Assembly (NCBI RefSeq): GCF_001368815.1
Contig: NZ_CTEI01000001.1
Location: 124,001 to 188,000, forward strand
DNA length: 64,000 nt
From: Paraliobacillus sp. PM-2
GTDB taxonomy: Bacteria; Bacillota; Bacilli; Bacillales; Amphibacillaceae
Direction of reading: 5' to 3'
Made by a program: the position numbers and the translations under genes. This document shows positions 16,980-28,957 of this stretch, piece after piece. How positions within the stretch are numbered: the stretch's first letter is position 1; each line of letters opens with the position of its first letter. Under the pieces are notes generated by a model. It had not been told where the DNA came from. It saw nothing but the letters and a program-made list of their open reading frames with translations, and searched no databases.

Positions 16980-17021
16980 ACTAACTATGCATATAAATAT
17001 TTTAATTTGGGAGATATTAAC

Positions 17022-19901
17022 ATGTCTAACTTCATTTATCAATTGCAGCAGTCCTATGAAAAAGGATTTATTAATAAGAACAATAAGTATAAAGGGAAAT
17101 TTAAGCCAGAGTTATTGTTAAATAATCAACATAAAAAGCAAAACGTACTAACAACGTTAATAGATGAGTTGAAAGATTGTCGATCTTTCTTATTTTCAGT
17201 TGCTTTTATTACAGAAGGTGGGTTAGCAACTTTAAAGTCCCATTTGCTAGATTTGCATCATAAAGATGTCAAAGGATGTATTCTTACTTCAACTTATCAA
17301 TATTTTAATCAACCTAAGATATTTAAAGAATTACTTAAGTTAAAAAATGTAGAAGTGCGTATATCGGATGTAGAAGGTTTTCATTCAAAAGGTTACATTT
17401 TCCAACACGACAACTATTCTACATTAATTGTAGGAAGCTCAAACTTATCTGCCAATGCTCTAAAGGTGAACTATGAATGGAATATTAAATTAACCTCACA
17501 TGATAATGGCGAATTACTTCATTATTTTCAAAAGCAATTTAATGAAATGTGGGGGCATTCGACAACGTTAACATATGATTGGATTGAACAATACCAAAGT
17601 CAATGTAAACAGATTCAACACACAAAGGTTGCTGAAATGGCTCCTAGTTACATAAGTAATAAAATGGAGCAAGCGCTAACCATTGAACCAAATAAAATGC
17701 AAGTACAAGCTCTAAAGGGAATTCAGGCTATTAGAAACCAAGGTCAGGATCGAGGACTAATCATCTCCGCTACTGGTACTGGAAAGACCTATTTAGCAGC
17801 ATTTGATGTAAGAAACGAAAGGCCAAAACGTATGTTGTTCATTGTTCATCGGGAACAAATTTTGCAAAAAGCAAAACAAGACTTTATGAAAATATTAGGT
17901 GGAAATGAAAATGATTTTGGAATTTTAACAGGTAGTAGTAAGCAAATTGATCGGAAATATGTTTTTGCAACGGTCCAAACAATTTCTAAAGAAGAAACGT
18001 TGCAACAACTTAACGAAGATTCTTTTGATTATATATTAATAGATGAGAGTCATCGAGCTGGTGCTAATTCCTATCAACGTATTATTAATCATTTTAGTCC
18101 AGAATTCTTATTAGGTATGACTGCTACACCAGAACGAACCGATGGGTATGATTTATTTCAATTATTTAATTACAATATAGCTTATGAAATTAGACTACAA
18201 GAAGCATTAGAAGAAGATATGCTGGTACCTTTTCATTATTATGGTGTGACCGACCTTGAAATTGACGGAGAGGTTAAAGATGTTGCACTCTTTAATCAAT
18301 TGGTTTCTGATGAGCGAATAAAGCAGATTATTGAAAAAATTGAATATTATAGTTATTCAGGTGATAAAGTTAGAGGTTTAATGTTTTGTAGCACAAAAAA
18401 AGAAGCGAGTCATTTATCTGCGTTATTTAACCAACATGGTTTAAAAACAGTTGCATTAACAGGTGATGATCCACAAGAAACTAGACAATATCAAGTGAAT
18501 AGACTTGAGAATGGATACCTAGATTACATTATCACGGTTAATATTTTTAATGAAGGTATTGATATACCAGCAATTAATCAAGTAGTTATGCTTAGACAAA
18601 CAGATTCTAGTATTATTTTTATCCAGCAGCTAGGCAGAGGATTGCGAAAGCATGAGTCGAAGCAACATCTCACAGTGATTGACTTCATTGGAAATTATCA
18701 AAATAACTTCTTAATTCCAGTTGCTTTATCAGGGGATAATTCACAAAATAAAGATTCTATCCGGCGTAAAATGATTGATACAAGCTATATCAAGGGTACA
18801 TCAACCGTTAATTTTGAAGCGGTTGCAAAGCAGAGAATCTATGAATCTATTAAAACGGCCAATTTAATGCACATGAAAGTATTAAAGGATGCCTATCAAA
18901 CATTAAAAATGCGCATTGGACGTATGCCATTATTAGAAGATTTTTATGATTATAATTCAGTAGATCCTACCGTCATTGTAGATAAGAAAAGCAATATGTT
19001 AGTCTTCTTACAATCTATTAAGGAAGAAGTAAGTGATATACCCAAGCATGCTGAACAAATTTTGACCTTTATCTCTCAGGAGGTACTACCAGGAAAACGA
19101 AAACATGAAATTATTCTGTTGCAAACGTTGCTAGAAAACGTTTCACTTAGTAAACATATGTTTATGGAAATACTCGCTTCAAAAGGTTTACCGATGGATG
19201 ATCAAATAGTAAGATCCGTTGAAAGAATAGTGCAGCTGGAATTCTTCACAGCACCAGAACAAAAGAAATATGGAAGTGAACCGATTGTTAATGTACGAGA
19301 TGATAAGTATGAGATGCCAGAAAAATTCCAACAATATCTAACGCAGTCATGGTTTAAAAAATTAGTACAAGACGTATTAGCCGTGGCGGAAAAAAGATCT
19401 CGTCGTTTTGACAAAGAACAGTCCTTAACAAGGTTAGAAAAATACTCACGTAAAGATGTTTGTAAGTATTTAAATTGGGATAATGACGAAGGTTCTACAA
19501 TGTATGGATATAAAACAAAGCATGGAACTTGTCCTATTTTTGTTACATATCATAAAAAAGAAGATGTGGAAGCTAGCGTCAATTATGAAGATACTTTTAA
19601 GAGTCCTGAAGTATTACATTGGTATACAAAAAGTAGACGTCGTAAGACCTCAAAAGAAGTAATAAATATAATTGAAGCAGAAGAAAGAAACATAAATATA
19701 CATTTGTTTGTTAAGAAAGATGATGATGAAGGTAATGACTTTTATTATTTGGGTGAAGCAACACCTGATCAGGCAACTGTAGAAGAAACTACAATGATTG
19801 GTAAAAATAAAGAAGAACTTCCAGTGGTTACGATGGATTTACATCTAGATGAGACAGTAGATCAAGCAATCTATGATTATTTGCATGAAAATATTATATA
19901 A
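17022..19901 (+). CDS. PLD-nuclease/SF2 helicase with DUF3427-like C-terminus
   Basis: A 959-residue multidomain protein. Residues ~40-190 form a phospholipase-D-like nuclease module with the HxK motif at 121-123 (HSKGY) and GSSNLSANAL at 138-147. Residues ~220-400 are the DEAD/DEAH ATPase with Walker A SATGTGKT (249-256), DESH (341-344) and TATPERTDG. The helicase C domain follows with IFNEGIDIP and motif VI QQLGRGLRKH. The last ~300 residues match the position and style of DUF3427 (RKDVCKYLNWDNDEGSTMYG, TCPIFVTYHK). Helicases of this layout are widespread in accessory regions and are suspected to act in DNA repair or phage defence. Start 17022 is chosen because GGGAG precedes it and a terminator and promoter lie upstream. 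Convergent with a Nudix gene. Confidence 0.92.
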   Translation: MSNFIYQLQQSYEKGFINKNNKYKGKFKPELLLNNQHKKQNVLTTLIDELKDCRSFLFSVAFITEGGLATLKSHLLDLHHKDVKGCILTSTYQYFNQPKIFKELLKLKNVEVRISDVEGFHSKGYIFQHDNYSTLIVGSSNLSANALKVNYEWNIKLTSHDNGELLHYFQKQFNEMWGHSTTLTYDWIEQYQSQCKQIQHTKVAEMAPSYISNKMEQALTIEPNKMQVQALKGIQAIRNQGQDRGLIISATGTGKTYLAAFDVRNERPKRMLFIVHREQILQKAKQDFMKILGGNENDFGILTGSSKQIDRKYVFATVQTISKEETLQQLNEDSFDYILIDESHRAGANSYQRIINHFSPEFLLGMTATPERTDGYDLFQLFNYNIAYEIRLQEALEEDMLVPFHYYGVTDLEIDGEVKDVALFNQLVSDERIKQIIEKIEYYSYSGDKVRGLMFCSTKKEASHLSALFNQHGLKTVALTGDDPQETRQYQVNRLENGYLDYIITVNIFNEGIDIPAINQVVMLRQTDSSIIFIQQLGRGLRKHESKQHLTVIDFIGNYQNNFLIPVALSGDNSQNKDSIRRKMIDTSYIKGTSTVNFEAVAKQRIYESIKTANLMHMKVLKDAYQTLKMRIGRMPLLEDFYDYNSVDPTVIVDKKSNMLVFLQSIKEEVSDIPKHAEQILTFISQEVLPGKRKHEIILLQTLLENVSLSKHMFMEILASKGLPMDDQIVRSVERIVQLEFFTAPEQKKYGSEPIVNVRDDKYEMPEKFQQYLTQSWFKKLVQDVLAVAEKRSRRFDKEQSLTRLEKYSRKDVCKYLNWDNDEGSTMYGYKTKHGTCPIFVTYHKKEDVEASVNYEDTFKSPEVLHWYTKSRRRKTSKEVINIIEAEERNINIHLFVKKDDDEGNDFYYLGEATPDQATVEETTMIGKNKEELPVVTMDLHLDETVDQAIYDYLHENII

Positions 19902-19905
19902 TAAG

Positions 19906-19936
19906 AAGAGCACATCAGTATTTATGTGCTCTTTCC
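19906..19936 (+). terminator. Terminator of helicase gene inside Nudix 3' end
   Basis: AAGAGCACA (19906-19914) pairs with TGTGCTCTT (19925-19933) and is followed by TT. The 3' arm is part of the last codons of the convergent Nudix gene, so the two convergent genes share this hairpin. Confidence 0.75.
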
Positions 19937-20328
19937 GTTTGTTTCATTATCGTTTCTACAGCTGGAATATCTGCAGGAGCCCAAACAATTGAATTGAGGT
20001 TTTCCTTTGGCAACCAAATTAATTTTGTGTGTTCACTTGCTATCGGTGTGCCAGAGATAAGAGTTGCTTCAAGTGCAATTAATTGAATAATAAAGTTATC
20101 ATATTCATGTGTATGATCATGGATCACATTACCAGCTTGAATTACACAATCTAATTCCTCTTGAATTTCGCGTTCCAAAGCTTCTTGTAAATTCTCTCCT
20201 GCTTCTACTTTTCCGCCAGGAAACTCCCACTTGTTTGGTATAGACATATCGAGCGAGCGTAAAGCACATAAAACTTCCTCTTTAGTATTCTGCATAACAG
20301 CTGCTACTACTTTTACTTTCTTCTTCAT
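19915..20328 (-). CDS. Nudix (deoxy)nucleoside triphosphate pyrophosphohydrolase
   Basis: A 137-residue MutT-like Nudix hydrolase. The Nudix box is complete: GGKVEAGENLQEAL then REIQEELDC. The neighbouring ALRSLDMSIPNKWEFPGGK and the C-terminal WLPKENL are typical of 8-oxo-dGTP/CTP pyrophosphohydrolases that clean nucleotide pools. The ATG at 20328 is preferred because GGAGG lies 5 nt upstream; the longer frame has none. It converges with the DUF3427-type helicase. Nudix enzymes and this helicase type seem to occur together in several bacteria (from memory, not checked), which suggests a functional pair. Confidence 0.9.
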   Translation of the reverse strand: MKKKVKVVAAVMQNTKEEVLCALRSLDMSIPNKWEFPGGKVEAGENLQEALEREIQEELDCVIQAGNVIHDHTHEYDNFIIQLIALEATLISGTPIASEHTKLIWLPKENLNSIVWAPADIPAVETIMKQTERAHKY

Positions 20329-20501
20329 GTGAAACCTCCGAATTATCGTAGTTATTATATATTCTAGCATTTAAAAGATGGACCAGCTAGATTTTTGGAT
20401 CTTAAGATTAGATATTGTACAGATTTGAAAACGAAACTGTTTGGTGAGATAAGATGTTAGTGAAAATGAATAGAATAGTTAATTTAAAGTTTTTACGGGG
20501 C

Positions 20502-20621: not shown

Positions 20622-21122
20622 CTATTTTCTTTTGCTTGCTAACTTTTCTTTGATTTTTTGATCAATCTCATCAATTGGTGTTTCTAAAGACGGGTAATCC
20701 TTATTGTGTCCTGATGCATATCTTAAAGCCTTACCTTTTATAATGTTAAATTTGCCTTGATGAGCACCAACTACACCATAATACGCTTCATCTAGTACGT
20801 TTAAGTCTCCATTGGCTCCAAACAAGATCACTTTTTCATTGGGTTTCATATTTGGAACGCCATCAAAGTGGGCATAAGCTGATGAGCCATATGATCCAGT
20901 TTCATAAAAAGATTGCTTTTCAGCGAATGGCTGAATTTCTTGACTTTGTTCAGTAAGATTAACATCTCCATACTTTTTCACAAATGCTGTGTCTTCTGAA
21001 TTAAATTCTTTTCCGGTTTCATATTTTTGATTGATTTCATTAAATCGTTGTTGAATCTCACTTTCTGTTAATTTAGTATTACCCTCTTCAGCCCCTACTA
21101 GAATAGGAACAAGAAACCCCAT
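20622..21122 (-). CDS. Exported protein of unknown function, frameshifted signal peptide
   Basis: A 166-residue frame whose N-terminus (MGFLVPILVGAEEGN) looks like the second half of a signal peptide. The module EIQQRFNEINQKYETGKEFN plus FVKKYGD is shared with the next upstream gene, as is SFYETGSYGSS. The C-terminal half (KPNEKVILFGANGDL, YYGVVGAHQGKFNII) is not shared and not recognised. The frame as it stands has no good ribosome binding site. A TTG at 21160 with AAAGGG upstream would start MKKIIVSTLFF, but one T is missing in a seven-T tract, so the two parts are out of frame. The gene may be inactive, slippage-controlled or affected by a sequencing error. Confidence 0.65.
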   Translation of the reverse strand: MGFLVPILVGAEEGNTKLTESEIQQRFNEINQKYETGKEFNSEDTAFVKKYGDVNLTEQSQEIQPFAEKQSFYETGSYGSSAYAHFDGVPNMKPNEKVILFGANGDLNVLDEAYYGVVGAHQGKFNIIKGKALRYASGHNKDYPSLETPIDEIDQKIKEKLASKRK

Positions 21123-21324: not shown

Positions 21325-22059
21325 CTACACTGGATCACCTAAAATTGTAAAAGAACCGTCTAACAGTTTAAAATCTACATATGTATTAGTTGCGGAATAA
21401 GCTACACTACCTCTATACTCAACCGATCTTGAAAAGAATATTGAGTTTTGATTTGTGACAGAATCACTAAGAGTTTTTGAATACACAATCCCAATGCCCC
21501 CACTTCCTATTGTTCCGTAAGCTGTATGAGTAACATAAGCTGTGATTTTTGAAGGTGTAATATCATTAGTATCTAATTTTCCGGCAGTTATGGCTATACT
21601 ATAAGAGTTTTTGAAGACTCCATGTTCTGAACTAATTGTTCCTTCTAAGTATCCATCAAAACTATCAGAAGAGTTATATGATTCAGTTTCATAGAAAGAC
21701 TTTGTTTCCAGTAATGGAATTTCGATTTCTTGAATTGTCTCAGGAATATTATGATCATCTCCATACTTTTTCACAAATGCTGCATCTTCCAAATCAAATT
21801 CTTCTCCCATTTCATATTTTTGATTAATTTCATCAAAACGATGTTGGATCTCACGTGCTGTTAATTCTGATTCTATATTTTTAGTACTTACTAAAATGAA
21901 AATTGAAAATCCTATTAACAAAACTAAGATCAAACTAAAGAAACCAATAGTTATTTTTTTAAAACCTTTCAATCTTTTAATGACTAAGACTATTAAAACT
22001 ATTATGCTTATTGTAAAAATTAAGATAAGCATTCCGATTAAGTTGTAATTATCTAACAT
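21325..22059 (-). CDS. Membrane-anchored paralogue of the neighbouring exported protein
   Basis: About 244 residues. Two N-terminal membrane helices (roughly residues 9-30 and 38-60), then the module ELTAREIQHRFDEINQKYEM and FVKKYGDDH that the downstream gene also has, the SFYETESYNSS segment, and a C-terminal ~110-residue beta-rich domain (ITAYVTHTAYGTIGSGGIGI, SFTILGDP) that looks extracellular. ATG 22059 is chosen since AAAAAGGA lies 9 nt upstream; ATG 22068 overlaps that site. The two genes probably arose by duplication of the shared module followed by acquisition of different C-terminal domains. Function unknown. Confidence 0.7.
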   Translation of the reverse strand: MLDNYNLIGMLILIFTISIIVLIVLVIKRLKGFKKITIGFFSLILVLLIGFSIFILVSTKNIESELTAREIQHRFDEINQKYEMGEEFDLEDAAFVKKYGDDHNIPETIQEIEIPLLETKSFYETESYNSSDSFDGYLEGTISSEHGVFKNSYSIAITAGKLDTNDITPSKITAYVTHTAYGTIGSGGIGIVYSKTLSDSVTNQNSIFFSRSVEYRGSVAYSATNTYVDFKLLDGSFTILGDPV

Positions 22060-22283
22060 TCTAGACATCCTTTTTCAATTGTATTTTTATGGATTTCACA
22101 ATAACTTTATCATGCATCTTACAATTTAAAAAGGGATATTAAAATAGAGATTCTTTTTCTAACAAGTAAAAATACCGATTGTAGTGGAGCCCCCCTTTCT
22201 ATCTTAACAGAAGAAGATGTAGAGAATAACGAAGATTATTTTACTTTAATAAACAGAAGCATTAAAAGGATAACTATGCTTAA

Positions 22284-26505: not shown

Positions 26506-27681
26506 ATGACACAATTAAATTGGCATGATCTAATTCCGAAAGAAAAGATTATTGAATGGAGAAGGCATTTACATCAAAATCCTGAATTGTCATTTGAAGA
26601 GTATAATACATCACAATTTATTTATGATACATTGGCAGTTTTCCCGAATCTTGAATTAAATCGTCCGACTAAAACAAGTGTTGTTGCAACTTTAAAAGGA
26701 GGCGCCGGCGAAGGTCGAACCATTGCACTTCGGGCTGATATGGATGCTTTACCAATTCAAGAAGAAGCAGATGTTCATTTCCCATCGCTTAATAAAGGTG
26801 TCATGCACGCCTGTGGACATGATGCACACGTATCCATGCTTCTCGGTGCAGTTCAAGTCCTCTCACATATGAATGATAAACTCGCTGGCACTGTGAAGTT
26901 TATCTTCCAACACGCTGAAGAACTTGTACCTGGTGGTGCACAGGAGTTAGTTGATGCTGGCGTTTTAGAAGATGTTGATGAAATTTATGGAATTCATATT
27001 TTTCCTACATTTAAAAAGGGCACCATTGGGATCGTAGATGGTGCGGCAACAATTGCAGCAGACGGTTTTTTTCTAAAAATACAAGGTAAAGGTTCACATG
27101 CATCAACACCCGAGCTGGCAATTGATCCAATTATTGTTGGTAGTGAAATAGTTTCAGCATTACAAACGGTTCGTTCAAGAAGTGTCAAATCAAGTGAAAA
27201 TGCCATTATTAGTGTTGGGGAATTTGTAAGTGGACAAGCACCTAATATCATTCCTGATACGGCTAAGCTTAGCTGTTCAATTCGTTCTTTTAGTGAGGAA
27301 ACACGTAACTTAATTGAAACACGTGTGAAGGATATTATTGAACATGTCACAAAAGCGCATGGCGCAACTTATGAACTTAATTATATTCGTGGTTATTCAC
27401 CCGTCATTAACAATAATGAGCAAGCTGTTAAAGCAAAAAGAGCTGCAACAAAAGCATTGGGTGAAGCGTTAGTATATGATGCTGAAACGTTAATGGGAAG
27501 TGAAGATTTCTCTGCTTATACAAAAGTCGTTCCTGGCTGCTTTATGTTTTTAGGTGCTGGAACTGAGGAGGATAATTGTAGTTATTTTAATCACCATCCA
27601 AAATTCAATATTGTTGAGGAAACAATGTTTAATGGAACAAAAGTAGAAATACAGCTTATTCTTGACTTGATTGGAAGATGA
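26506..27681 (+). CDS. M20-family amidohydrolase, copy 1
   Basis: A 391-residue M20D metallopeptidase-type hydrolase, the family of N-acyl-amino-acid and N-acetyl-cysteine deacetylases and IAA-amino-acid hydrolases. Metal and catalytic motifs: RRHLHQNPELSFEE, MHACGHDAH (His101, Cys103, His105), QHAEELVPGGA (His136, Glu138, Glu139) and GSEDFSAYTKVVPG. The dimerisation domain lies in the middle (SHASTPELAIDPIIVGSEIV). AGGAGGAAAG precedes the ATG. The next gene encodes a close paralogue, followed by two MFS carriers and a TetR regulator; together they look like an uptake-and-hydrolysis cluster for an N-acylated compound (inference). Confidence 0.93.
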   Translation: MTQLNWHDLIPKEKIIEWRRHLHQNPELSFEEYNTSQFIYDTLAVFPNLELNRPTKTSVVATLKGGAGEGRTIALRADMDALPIQEEADVHFPSLNKGVMHACGHDAHVSMLLGAVQVLSHMNDKLAGTVKFIFQHAEELVPGGAQELVDAGVLEDVDEIYGIHIFPTFKKGTIGIVDGAATIAADGFFLKIQGKGSHASTPELAIDPIIVGSEIVSALQTVRSRSVKSSENAIISVGEFVSGQAPNIIPDTAKLSCSIRSFSEETRNLIETRVKDIIEHVTKAHGATYELNYIRGYSPVINNNEQAVKAKRAATKALGEALVYDAETLMGSEDFSAYTKVVPGCFMFLGAGTEEDNCSYFNHHPKFNIVEETMFNGTKVEIQLILDLIGR

Positions 27682-27781: not shown

Positions 27782-28957
27782 ATGATAACAGATTGGAATA
27801 ATTTAGTTCCGAAAGAAAAGATTATTAAGTGGAGAAGACAACTGCATCAAAATCCTGAATTGTCATTTGAAGAGTATAATACCTCTCAGTTCATTTTTGA
27901 TACGTTAGCGACTTTCCCTAACTTAGAATTAACACGTCCTACTGAAACAAGTGTAGTTGCAACTTTAAAAGGTGGTGCAGGTGAAGGACAAACGATTGCG
28001 CTGCGTGCTGACATGGACGCATTACCAATTAAAGAAGAAACAGATGTTAAATTCAAGTCCAAAAACCAAGGTGTCATGCATGCATGTGGCCATGACACAC
28101 ATGTTGCCATGCTTCTTGGTGCGGCGAAAGTACTAACCAGTATGAAGGATAACCTTGCAGGAACAGTCAAATTCATTTTTCAACATGCTGAAGAACAAGT
28201 ACCAGGTGGTGCACAGCAAATCATCGATGCTGGCGTTTTAAAAGATGTTGACGAGATATATGGTATACACATACTGCCAACATTTAAAAAAGGTTCAATA
28301 GGCATTGTTGATGGTGCAGCTACAATCGCAGCTGATGGATTTTACTTGAAGATACAAGGTAAAGGCTCACATGCTTCAACACCTGAGTTAGCAATTGATC
28401 CAATTATCGTCGGTAGTGAACTCGTCACGGCATTACAGACTATTCGTTCCAGAAGTGTTAAATCGAGTGAAAATGCAATTATTAGTATTGGTGAATTTAT
28501 TAGTGGACAAGCTCCGAATATCATTGCGGATACAGCAAAATTAAGCTGTTCTATTCGTTCATTCAATGAGAAAACACGTGATTTAGTTGAAAAACGTGTC
28601 AGAGAAATTGTTGAACATGTGACAAAAGCTCATGGTGCATCTTATGAGCTTAATTATATCCGTGGCTATTCTCCTGTCATAAATAATCATGAATTAGCTG
28701 TCAAAGCAAAACAAGCAGCTATCAATGTTTTAGGTGAAGAGTTAGTTTATGATGCAAACACACTAATGGCAAGTGAAGATTTCTCTGCGTACACAAAAGT
28801 GGTACCTGGCTGCTTTATGTTTTTAGGAGCAGGCACAGAAGAAGATGGCATTAAATACTTTAACCATAATCCGAAGTTCGATGTTTTAGAAGAATCGATG
28901 TTTAATGGGACAAAAGTAGAAGTACAAGTAATACTAGACCTACTAGGTAGATATTAA
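27782..28957 (+). CDS. M20-family amidohydrolase, copy 2
   Basis: Same length (391 aa) and the same motifs as the gene 100 nt upstream: MHACGHDTH, QHAEEQVPGGAQ, SEDFSAYTKVVPGCFMFLGA. I estimate roughly 80% identity by eye. All metal ligands are kept in both. Differences cluster on the surface and in KEETDVKFKSKNQ near the active site, so the pair may differ in acyl preference. GAGGTGGAG precedes the ATG. A tandem duplication retained intact suggests dosage or specialisation. Confidence 0.93.
   Translation: MITDWNNLVPKEKIIKWRRQLHQNPELSFEEYNTSQFIFDTLATFPNLELTRPTETSVVATLKGGAGEGQTIALRADMDALPIKEETDVKFKSKNQGVMHACGHDTHVAMLLGAAKVLTSMKDNLAGTVKFIFQHAEEQVPGGAQQIIDAGVLKDVDEIYGIHILPTFKKGSIGIVDGAATIAADGFYLKIQGKGSHASTPELAIDPIIVGSELVTALQTIRSRSVKSSENAIISIGEFISGQAPNIIADTAKLSCSIRSFNEKTRDLVEKRVREIVEHVTKAHGASYELNYIRGYSPVINNHELAVKAKQAAINVLGEELVYDANTLMASEDFSAYTKVVPGCFMFLGAGTEEDGIKYFNHNPKFDVLEESMFNGTKVEVQVILDLLGRY

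What the first reader, a model, noticed from the sequence alone, without database searches (positions are those of the whole stretch)
17022..20328. PLD-SF2-helicase (DUF3427 type) paired with a Nudix hydrolase
A nuclease-helicase with intact HxK, Walker A and DESH motifs converges on a Nudix nucleotide hydrolase, sharing one terminator. The layout suggests a two-gene module acting on damaged nucleotides or DNA, or a phage-defence unit that both attacks DNA and cleans nucleotide pools. Neither partner has an established role in this combination as far as I know.
Basis: partly seen in the sequence, partly recalled or inferred. Interest (0 to 1): 0.6.

Follow-up and report, generated by a model that had tools for sequence, protein, structure and literature searches.

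The report
Methyl-DNA restriction enzyme with nucleotide-cleaner partner
The window carries a known kind of bacterial enzyme that cuts DNA containing methylated cytosine, next to a small enzyme that probably destroys methylated-cytosine building blocks; the two genes travel together across bacteria and archaea, which suggests the second one stops the first from attacking the cell's own DNA or starves viruses that use such bases.

Summary
In detail: two intact convergent genes share a hairpin. The large gene is not of unknown role: it is a full-length relative of SauUSI, the Type IV restriction enzyme that cuts DNA carrying m5C or hm5C (7clg, residues 1-954, E 2e-275). The small gene is the Nudix protein that PADLOC lists separately as PDC-S07. 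The pairing is deep. Of 98 Bacilli genomes with a strong DUF3427 match, 91 have the Nudix within 6 kb (42 of 45 genera); so do 68 of 80 named loci, in three bacterial phyla and archaea. Gene arrangement changed 13 times on the tree while linkage held. McrC, a control from another m5C system, is near it in 1 of 71 places. [quoted passage not shown] Best reading: a dedicated dNTP-pool partner that keeps these bases out of host DNA (inferred, 0.45). Rival: it starves phages of modified dCTP. The adjacency is already in print twice, without a function.

The parts
17022..19901 (+). SauUSI-type Type IV restriction enzyme (PLD nuclease, SF2 ATPase, DUF3427), 959 aa
   Evidence: Pfam; PADLOC mREase_IV 952.6 bits over the whole length; 7clg_A residues 1-954, E 2e-275
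17235..17552 (+). PLDc_2 nuclease domain (aa 72-177); HxK = H121, K123 at 17382-17390
   Evidence: H121, K123, S139, N141, E152 invariant in the 12-sequence alignment
17682..18137 (+). ResIII helicase domain 1 (aa 221-372); Walker A ATGTGKT 17769-17789; DESH 18042-18053
18357..18650 (+). Helicase_C domain (aa 446-543) with QQLGRGLRK motif
19068..19883 (+). DUF3427 (aa 683-954), the domain proposed for SauUSI to recognise the modified substrate
   Evidence: 294.8 bits; role as cited in PMC3874153
19905..19934 (.). shared hairpin between the convergent genes, terminator-like on both strands, overlapping the end of the Nudix gene
   Evidence: both strands; -14.4 kcal/mol, z -4.37
19915..20328 (-). 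Nudix hydrolase (PDC-S07 type), 137 aa, predicted 5-methyl/5-hydroxymethyl-dCTP pyrophosphatase
   Evidence: NUDIX; PDC-S07 162.1 bits
20146..20214 (-). Nudix box (aa 39-61: G39 x5 E45 x7 R53 E54 xx E57 E58; the usual later G is D60)
   Evidence: sequence; these G, E, R positions are 100% conserved in 142 Nudix sequences from helicase loci
17009..17013 (+). ribosome-binding-like GGGAG before gene A
   Evidence: sequence
20335..20339 (-). ribosome-binding-like GGAGG before gene B
   Evidence: sequence

Best explanation
The locus is a two-gene Type IV restriction module. Shown by comparison: the large protein is a SauUSI-type enzyme, and the small one is its conserved partner. Inferred from SauUSI: the large protein binds m5C or hm5C in foreign DNA with DUF3427, uses ATP, and cuts with the PLD domain. 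[quoted passage not shown] Such triphosphates can arise when methylated foreign DNA is degraded and its nucleotides are salvaged, or during infection by phages that make them. Polymerases would put them into the host chromosome and create SauUSI targets. The Nudix partner would therefore act as an immunity gene that works on the precursor pool rather than on the nuclease. The host genome has no PF00145 C5-cytosine methyltransferase, so the pool could be its main internal source of m5C. Identity of the two genes is near certain; the stated confidence is for the self-protection mechanism.
For: Identity. Linkage: 91 of 98 Bacilli genomes with DUF3427 at 130 bits or more, 42 of 45 genera; 68 of 80 named loci, of the other 12 three run off a contig end; 7 of 7 strong DUF3427 Bacteroidota, one being the centre of that sample. 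13 arrangement changes among linked loci by parsimony. In the same-strand class the Nudix comes first, median gap 4 bases. Asymmetry: 95 of 98 strong-DUF3427 genomes hold a strong Nudix somewhere, against 49 of 300 others. Substrate match: the closest characterised relative by sequence (3gwy, Q5LBB1) has kcat/Km 6.7e6 on 5-Me-CTP, 4.8e6 on 5-Me-dCTP, 4.4e6 on 5-hydroxymethyl-dCTP and 8.5e4 on 5-OH-dCTP (PMC5158307); E. coli NudG has 1.3e6 on 5-methyl-dCTP against 4.7e4 on CTP; SauUSI cuts m5C and hm5C DNA but not m4C or glucosylated hm5C (PMC3874153). H at NudG position 98, shared by NudG, Q5LBB1 and MutT2 and G in E. coli MutT, is in the window and in 99% of 142 Nudix from helicase loci. No PF00145 match in the host. 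PMC10742078 (passages): 5-methyl-dCTP may come mainly from degraded methylated DNA, and polymerases use it like dCTP.
Against: No biochemistry on this Nudix or on any Nudix known to be SauUSI-linked was found. McrC, from another m5C-dependent system, is not linked to the Nudix (1 of 71 places, and that one lies beside a SauUSI pair), and McrC-only genomes hold it only slightly more often than genomes with neither (11 of 40 against 38 of 260, p 0.06); a general need for self-protection would predict more. Some SauUSI relatives have no strong Nudix in the genome (G208, G279; lactobacilli L216, L251, L258, L262, L263). The Nudix scores below the curated cut-offs of NudG (96 against 156) and MutT (75.8 against 97.9), and differs from NudG at R72 and R77. 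NudG itself is also credited with 2-OH-dATP and annotated as 5-hydroxy-CTP diphosphatase. H98 is also in 93% of 44 unlinked Nudix, so it does not mark a partner-specific function. Bacterial kinases may discriminate against 5-methyl-dCMP (recalled), which would keep the pool small.
Confidence: 0.45

Rival explanations
1. The Nudix is itself an anti-phage weapon: it destroys the hm-dCTP or 5-methyl-dCTP that modifying phages need, while SauUSI cuts phage DNA that still carries the base. The two layers act on the same modification.
For: Same substrate match as the best explanation; PADLOC already lists both as defence genes or candidates; pairs occur on plasmids.
Against: Removing the modified nucleotide would lower the number of SauUSI targets in phage DNA, so the layers partly conflict. 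Many strong Nudix relatives have no SauUSI-type gene nearby (54 of 150 listed), and the few neighbours scanned look mostly like housekeeping (13 proteins at 10 of these 54 loci), which fits pool cleaning.
Confidence: 0.25
2. The Nudix is a general pool-cleaning enzyme (8-oxo-dGTP, 5-OH-dCTP or others) that eases the replication stress or mutation caused by restriction, without a link to the modified base.
For: MutT-like family names in databases; many relatives without SauUSI nearby.
Against: Linkage is strong to DUF3427 enzymes and absent for McrC; PLD-helicases without DUF3427 are not linked unless in tandem with a DUF3427 enzyme. H98 is shared with NudG, Q5LBB1 and MutT2, and W114 with Q5LBB1 and MutT2, not with E. 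coli MutT.
Confidence: 0.15
3. The Nudix regulates or partners the nuclease directly, for example by binding it or by sensing modified mono- or triphosphates.
For: Conserved operon with the Nudix first; distance matrices of the two proteins correlate (142 pairs, Mantel r 0.45, 0 of 999 permutations as high), which also follows from shared descent.
Against: SauUSI alone was enough for activity in vitro and in E. coli (PMC3874153). Catalytic Nudix residues are 100% conserved, so catalysis matters. Convergent arrangements do not suggest fixed stoichiometry.
Confidence: 0.1
4. Linkage without function: both are mobile defence genes carried together.
For: Unlinked copies of each exist; plasmid copies.
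Against: Next most frequent neighbour family is in 7 of 80 loci against 62 for the Nudix by the same method; 13 changes of arrangement kept the pair.
Confidence: 0.05

Closest known systems
SauUSI (Staphylococcus aureus, PDB 7clg; the name of that entry as SauUSI is recalled)
   Same: Same domain order and length; full-length alignment 1-954, 919 bits; catalytic motifs kept.
   Different: The window's Nudix partner is convergent and downstream; in staphylococci it is on the same strand directly upstream (for example S. simulans L214; S. aureus record). Activity of the window enzyme untested.
PADLOC PDC-S07 (candidate defence gene)
   Same: The window Nudix matches over residues 1-131 at 162.1 bits.
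   Different: PADLOC treats it as a separate entry; here it appears as the usual partner of SauUSI-type enzymes.
Q5LBB1 of Bacteroides fragilis (3gwy) and E. coli NudG/Orf135
   Same: Nudix box; H98 and D118; the window also has H72, Y74, F77 and W114 as Q5LBB1 does (H72, Y74, F77 also in 3hhj and 3r03). NudG 37% identical, MutT 28%.
   Different: Below the NudG curated cut-off; NudG is not beside a restriction gene in E. coli K-12 (5.5 kb viewed). Whether Q5LBB1 sits beside a SauUSI homologue was not tested.
McrBC
   Same: Also m5C-dependent Type IV restriction.
   Different: Different nuclease and GTPase (PMC3874153); McrC not linked to the Nudix.

Membership tests
SauUSI-type Type IV restriction enzyme | Full-length colinear PLD + SF2 ATPase + DUF3427 | tested here: met
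SauUSI-type Type IV restriction enzyme | PLD catalytic residues and ATPase motifs intact | tested here: met
   (H121, K123, S139, N141, E152, Walker A invariant); that four PLD residues are needed is from PMC3874153, which four was not checked
SauUSI-type Type IV restriction enzyme | No cognate C5 methyltransferase | tested here: met
   0 PF00145 matches in the host genome; the same search finds it in 10 of 14 control genomes
SauUSI-type Type IV restriction enzyme | ATP-dependent cutting of m5C or hm5C DNA | not testable with these tools
   needs purified protein
PDC-S07 Nudix | Match to PDLC04899 over the model | tested here: met
   162.1 bits, model positions 3-132 of 135
NudG equivalog (PRK10546) | Score above curated cut-off (156 bits) | tested here: not met
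   96 bits, so not filed as NudG
MutT equivalog (TIGR00586) | Score above curated cut-off (97.9 bits) | tested here: not met
   75.8 bits, so not filed as MutT
5-methyl-dCTP-type Nudix (works like) | H at NudG position 98, shared by NudG, Q5LBB1 and MutT2, G in E. coli MutT (a correlate found here, not an established criterion) | tested here: met
5-methyl-dCTP-type Nudix (works like) | Hydrolysis of 5-methyl-dCTP or hm-dCTP | not testable with these tools
   needs an assay

The most novel reading that the evidence does not exclude
SauUSI-type enzymes are two-gene restriction systems in which self-protection is achieved not by methylation, inhibition or repair but by keeping the forbidden base out of the DNA precursor pool: nuclease and nucleotide hydrolase read the same chemical mark, one in DNA and one in dNTPs. 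In Bacteroidota a fused LexA-like autoprotease may add a second, damage-triggered safety.
Probability: 0.4. Interest if true: 0.78.

Novelty: new variant of a known kind. Interest (0 to 1): 0.6.

Why it matters
Modification-dependent restriction enzymes have no cognate methylase, so how hosts avoid self-cutting when modified nucleotides enter the pool is open. A matched pair of DNA cutter and dNTP hydrolase would be a new way to tell self from non-self, would give a function to a PADLOC candidate gene, and makes a direct prediction: loss of the Nudix should be harmful only when SauUSI is present and modified dCTP is available. Type IV restriction is also a known barrier to transformation of S. 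aureus (abstract of PMC4373697, listing), so the partner gene may matter for strain engineering.

Tried and rejected
Unlinked Nudix as a clue to other partners: 54 of 150 listed Nudix matches had no listed helicase within 10 kb (the helicase list was itself cut at 285 bits). I fetched these 54 places, laid out their genes and scanned 13 neighbour proteins at 10 of them out of 265 neighbours. Most of the 13 look like housekeeping; L083 lies beside DISARM DrmA/DrmB, L084 beside a divergent helicase and PDC-S41. No second restriction partner emerged, but most neighbours were not scanned.

McrBC as a second partner: rejected, 1 of 71 McrC places.

Alternative partner in lactobacilli: an Exo_endo_phos gene of 275 aa lies upstream of SauUSI in L119 and L263 (scanned) and, by similarity or equal size, in L118, L249 and L262. 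Few and closely related; not pursued.

Fused forms: none. Phage-borne pairs: five phage records cover 80% or more of the query, all unannotated fecal or unverified contigs; treated as unsafe, though one (L266) has the Nudix too. A Pseudomonadota plasmid DUF3427 protein (L267) has no Nudix in the 5.7 kb fetched.

Early error: my ORF caller missed the Nudix in some loci, mainly GC-rich ones (62 of 80); a six-frame HMM search gave 68 of 80, and arrangement counts were redone. The labels use the first version; the neighbour comparison 62 against 7 uses it for both.

Promoter scan: at chance level. Structure prediction was not run: both proteins have close solved relatives. The first report was returned once for checking; in mending it I corrected counts of scanned neighbours, the role of sample centres, and several residue statements.
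Full report
What is there. Gene A (17022-19901, +) and gene B (19915-20328, -) converge on a hairpin at 19905-19934. Gene A is PLDc_2, ResIII, Helicase_C and DUF3427. It aligns end to end with 7clg (residues 1-954, 919 bits) and with PADLOC mREase_IV (952.6 bits). The PDB chain is labelled only 'putative helicase'; that it is SauUSI is my recall, supported by the PADLOC name and the domain order given for SauUSI in PMC3874153 (passages read). Gene B is a Nudix protein matching PADLOC PDC-S07 (162.1 bits).

What SauUSI does. From PMC3874153 (passages): one polypeptide, ATP-dependent, cuts DNA with m5C or hm5C at Sm5CNGS, needs two sites, does not cut m4C or glucosylated hm5C; DUF3427 is the proposed recognition domain; mutating any of four PLD residues abolishes activity.

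The pairing in Bacilli. Three searches covered 398 Bacilli genomes: mREase_IV (166 genomes with a match), PDC-S07 (227 genomes) and DUF3427 (132 genomes). The printed Nudix list is cut at 150 rows (95 bits or more) and the mREase list at 150 rows (285 bits or more); the DUF3427 list is complete (138 rows). DUF3427 at 130 bits or more: 98 genomes, 91 with a listed Nudix within 6 kb, 42 of 45 genera, 24 of 27 families. The seven others: three of one genus keep a strong Nudix elsewhere (G159, G169, G180); G129 has helicase and Nudix each near a contig end; G208 and G279 have none; G113 has only a short DUF3427 frame and no Nudix. A strong Nudix (130 bits or more) is present in 95 of these 98 genomes and in 49 of the other 300. 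Weaker DUF3427 matches (28-130 bits): 7 of 40 rows linked.

Controls. Of 53 listed mREase rows under 355 bits, 8 lie within 10 kb of a Nudix: three in tandem with a DUF3427 enzyme (G053, G096, G138; L148, L145, L150), the others with DUF3427 matches of their own (G144, G236, G259, G273, G383). Four PLD-helicases checked by Pfam lack DUF3427 (L168, L174, L176 and the first gene of L145); the first three have no Nudix in the locus. McrC: 71 rows in 65 genomes, 1 within 6 kb, beside a SauUSI pair. In 80 named loci the next most frequent neighbour family occurs in 7, against 62 for the Nudix by the same method.

Beyond Bacilli. Linked: 14 of 14 Actinomycetota, 2 of 2 Bacteroidota, 3 of 3 archaeal loci not cut, 49 of 58 Bacillota not cut; 43 of 49 genera. 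Of the nine without, eight genomes were searched: three keep a strong Nudix elsewhere (L206, L210, L249), five lactobacilli do not; L259 was not searched. A sample of 180 Bacteroidota centred on G409 (the genome of L261): 20 genomes with DUF3427, 7 strong including the centre, all 7 with the Nudix directly upstream on the same strand; of 14 weaker rows 12 were fetched, some cut by contig ends, and 4 had it. A sample of 188 Actinomycetota centred on G402 (the genome of L230): 19 genomes with DUF3427; the only strong one is the centre, which is linked; none of the 18 weak ones is.

Arrangement. After the six-frame correction, of 173 helicase rows (four of them without DUF3427) 98 have the Nudix upstream on the same strand, 44 convergent as in the window, 10 downstream on the same strand, 19 without, 2 unclear. 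On a FastTree tree 13 changes of arrangement are needed among linked rows. That tree has 46 of 168 weak inner branches and some long ones; with the first labels, well-supported branches alone forced 14 changes for same-strand upstream, 10 for convergent and 4 for downstream, each against all other rows. Same-strand pairs: median gap 4 bases, 32 of 92 overlapping or touching, with starts taken as the longest frame (before the correction). On the Nudix tree linked and unlinked rows mix (23 changes, 9 forced by well-supported branches), so the Nudix has been joined to or parted from these enzymes many times. That tree has few columns and long branches.

What the Nudix probably does. Its closest solved relatives are 5x1x (no function given), 3gwy and 2rrk. 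3gwy is Q5LBB1, which hydrolyses 5-Me-CTP, 5-Me-dCTP and 5-hydroxymethyl-dCTP at 4 to 7 million per molar per second, 5-OH-dCTP about 50-fold less, and canonical NTPs much less (PMC5158307, passages). 2rrk is E. coli NudG, for which the same paper lists 5-methyl-dCTP and 2-OH-dATP as likely substrates. [quoted passage not shown] At NudG position 98 all three have H, where E. coli MutT, 3hhj (labelled mutator MutT) and 3r03 (labelled NUDIX hydrolase) have G; the window has H, as do 99% of 142 Nudix from helicase loci and 93% of 44 unlinked ones. The 142 include near-copies and one weak second match (L140). D118 separates NudG from E. coli MutT but not from 3hhj and 3r03. The window differs from NudG at R72 and R77 (residues I recall as important in NudG) and matches Q5LBB1 there, as 3hhj and 3r03 also do. 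It fails the curated cut-offs for NudG and MutT, so I file it only as PDC-S07 and say it works like a 5-methyl-dCTP pyrophosphatase.

Mechanism. The nuclease reads m5C and hm5C in DNA; the partner's nearest characterised relative reads the same marks in nucleotides. PMC10742078 says that 5-methyl-dCTP may come mainly from degraded methylated DNA and that polymerases use it like dCTP. The host has no PF00145 methyltransferase, though a McrC homologue is present. A pool-cleaning immunity function follows naturally and fits the asymmetry (the nuclease rarely without the Nudix, the Nudix often without the nuclease) and the Nudix-first operon. It does not explain why McrBC lacks the partner. The anti-phage reading fits the same substrate match. 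I put self-protection at 0.45 and pool attack on phages at 0.25.

What is already in print. PMC7641849 (passage) states in a figure legend that small proteins adjacent to SauUSI homologues in Streptococcus are MutT homologues. PMC12813430 (passage) reports PDC-S07 and RM type IV co-localised in 23 of 23 Streptococcus suis occurrences. PMC11514479 (passages) lists PDC-S07 in two S. thermophilus strains. No paper linking modified-dCTP hydrolysis to Type IV restriction appeared among the listed results of ten searches; several of these listed only the top of hundreds of hits, and the library omits most subscription journals and preprints. The original SauUSI paper is not held.

Verdict.

Noticed in passing
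L261, L269, L271, L272, L273 (C-terminal part of the SauUSI homologue): Five Bacteroidota SauUSI homologues (1116-1160 aa) have extra sequence after DUF3427; Pfam finds Peptidase_S24 (LexA/UmuD-like) in the three scanned, and all five show an AAAG cleavage-like site, a GESM or GNSM serine and a TIK or TVK lysine (motif roles recalled). This suggests damage-triggered self-cleavage of a restriction enzyme. Two others (L270, L274) lack the extension.
   Followed up: partly
L118, L119, L249, L262, L263: In some lactobacilli and in G208/G279 an Exo_endo_phos family gene (275 aa; L119 and L263 scanned) lies upstream of SauUSI where the Nudix is missing.
   Followed up: partly
window 20622-21122 and 21325-22068 (-): Two neighbouring proteins without Pfam match share a motif (IQxRFxEINQKYExGxEF...FVKKYGD), so they look like diverged paralogues.
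   Followed up: no
window 26506-27681 and 27782-28957 (+): Tandem, very similar 391-aa proteins that look like M20-type amidohydrolases (family name recalled).
   Followed up: no
G000:C1:908108-909052: The host genome also has a McrC (PF10117) match far from the pair, so it may hold a second modification-dependent system.
   Followed up: no
L145, L148, L150: A PLD-helicase without a DUF3427 match lies in tandem before or beside a DUF3427 enzyme and its Nudix in three genomes.
   Followed up: no
L083: A Nudix close to the window's (198 bits by phmmer) in a genome of the same family lies beside DISARM drmA/drmB with no SauUSI-like gene in the 12 kb fetched.
   Followed up: partly
L264 (S. aureus NZ_CP077890.1): A linear plasmid record with the Nudix ending 1 base before the SauUSI match; SauUSI is in more than one open piece and also appears on the other strand further on.
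   Followed up: no
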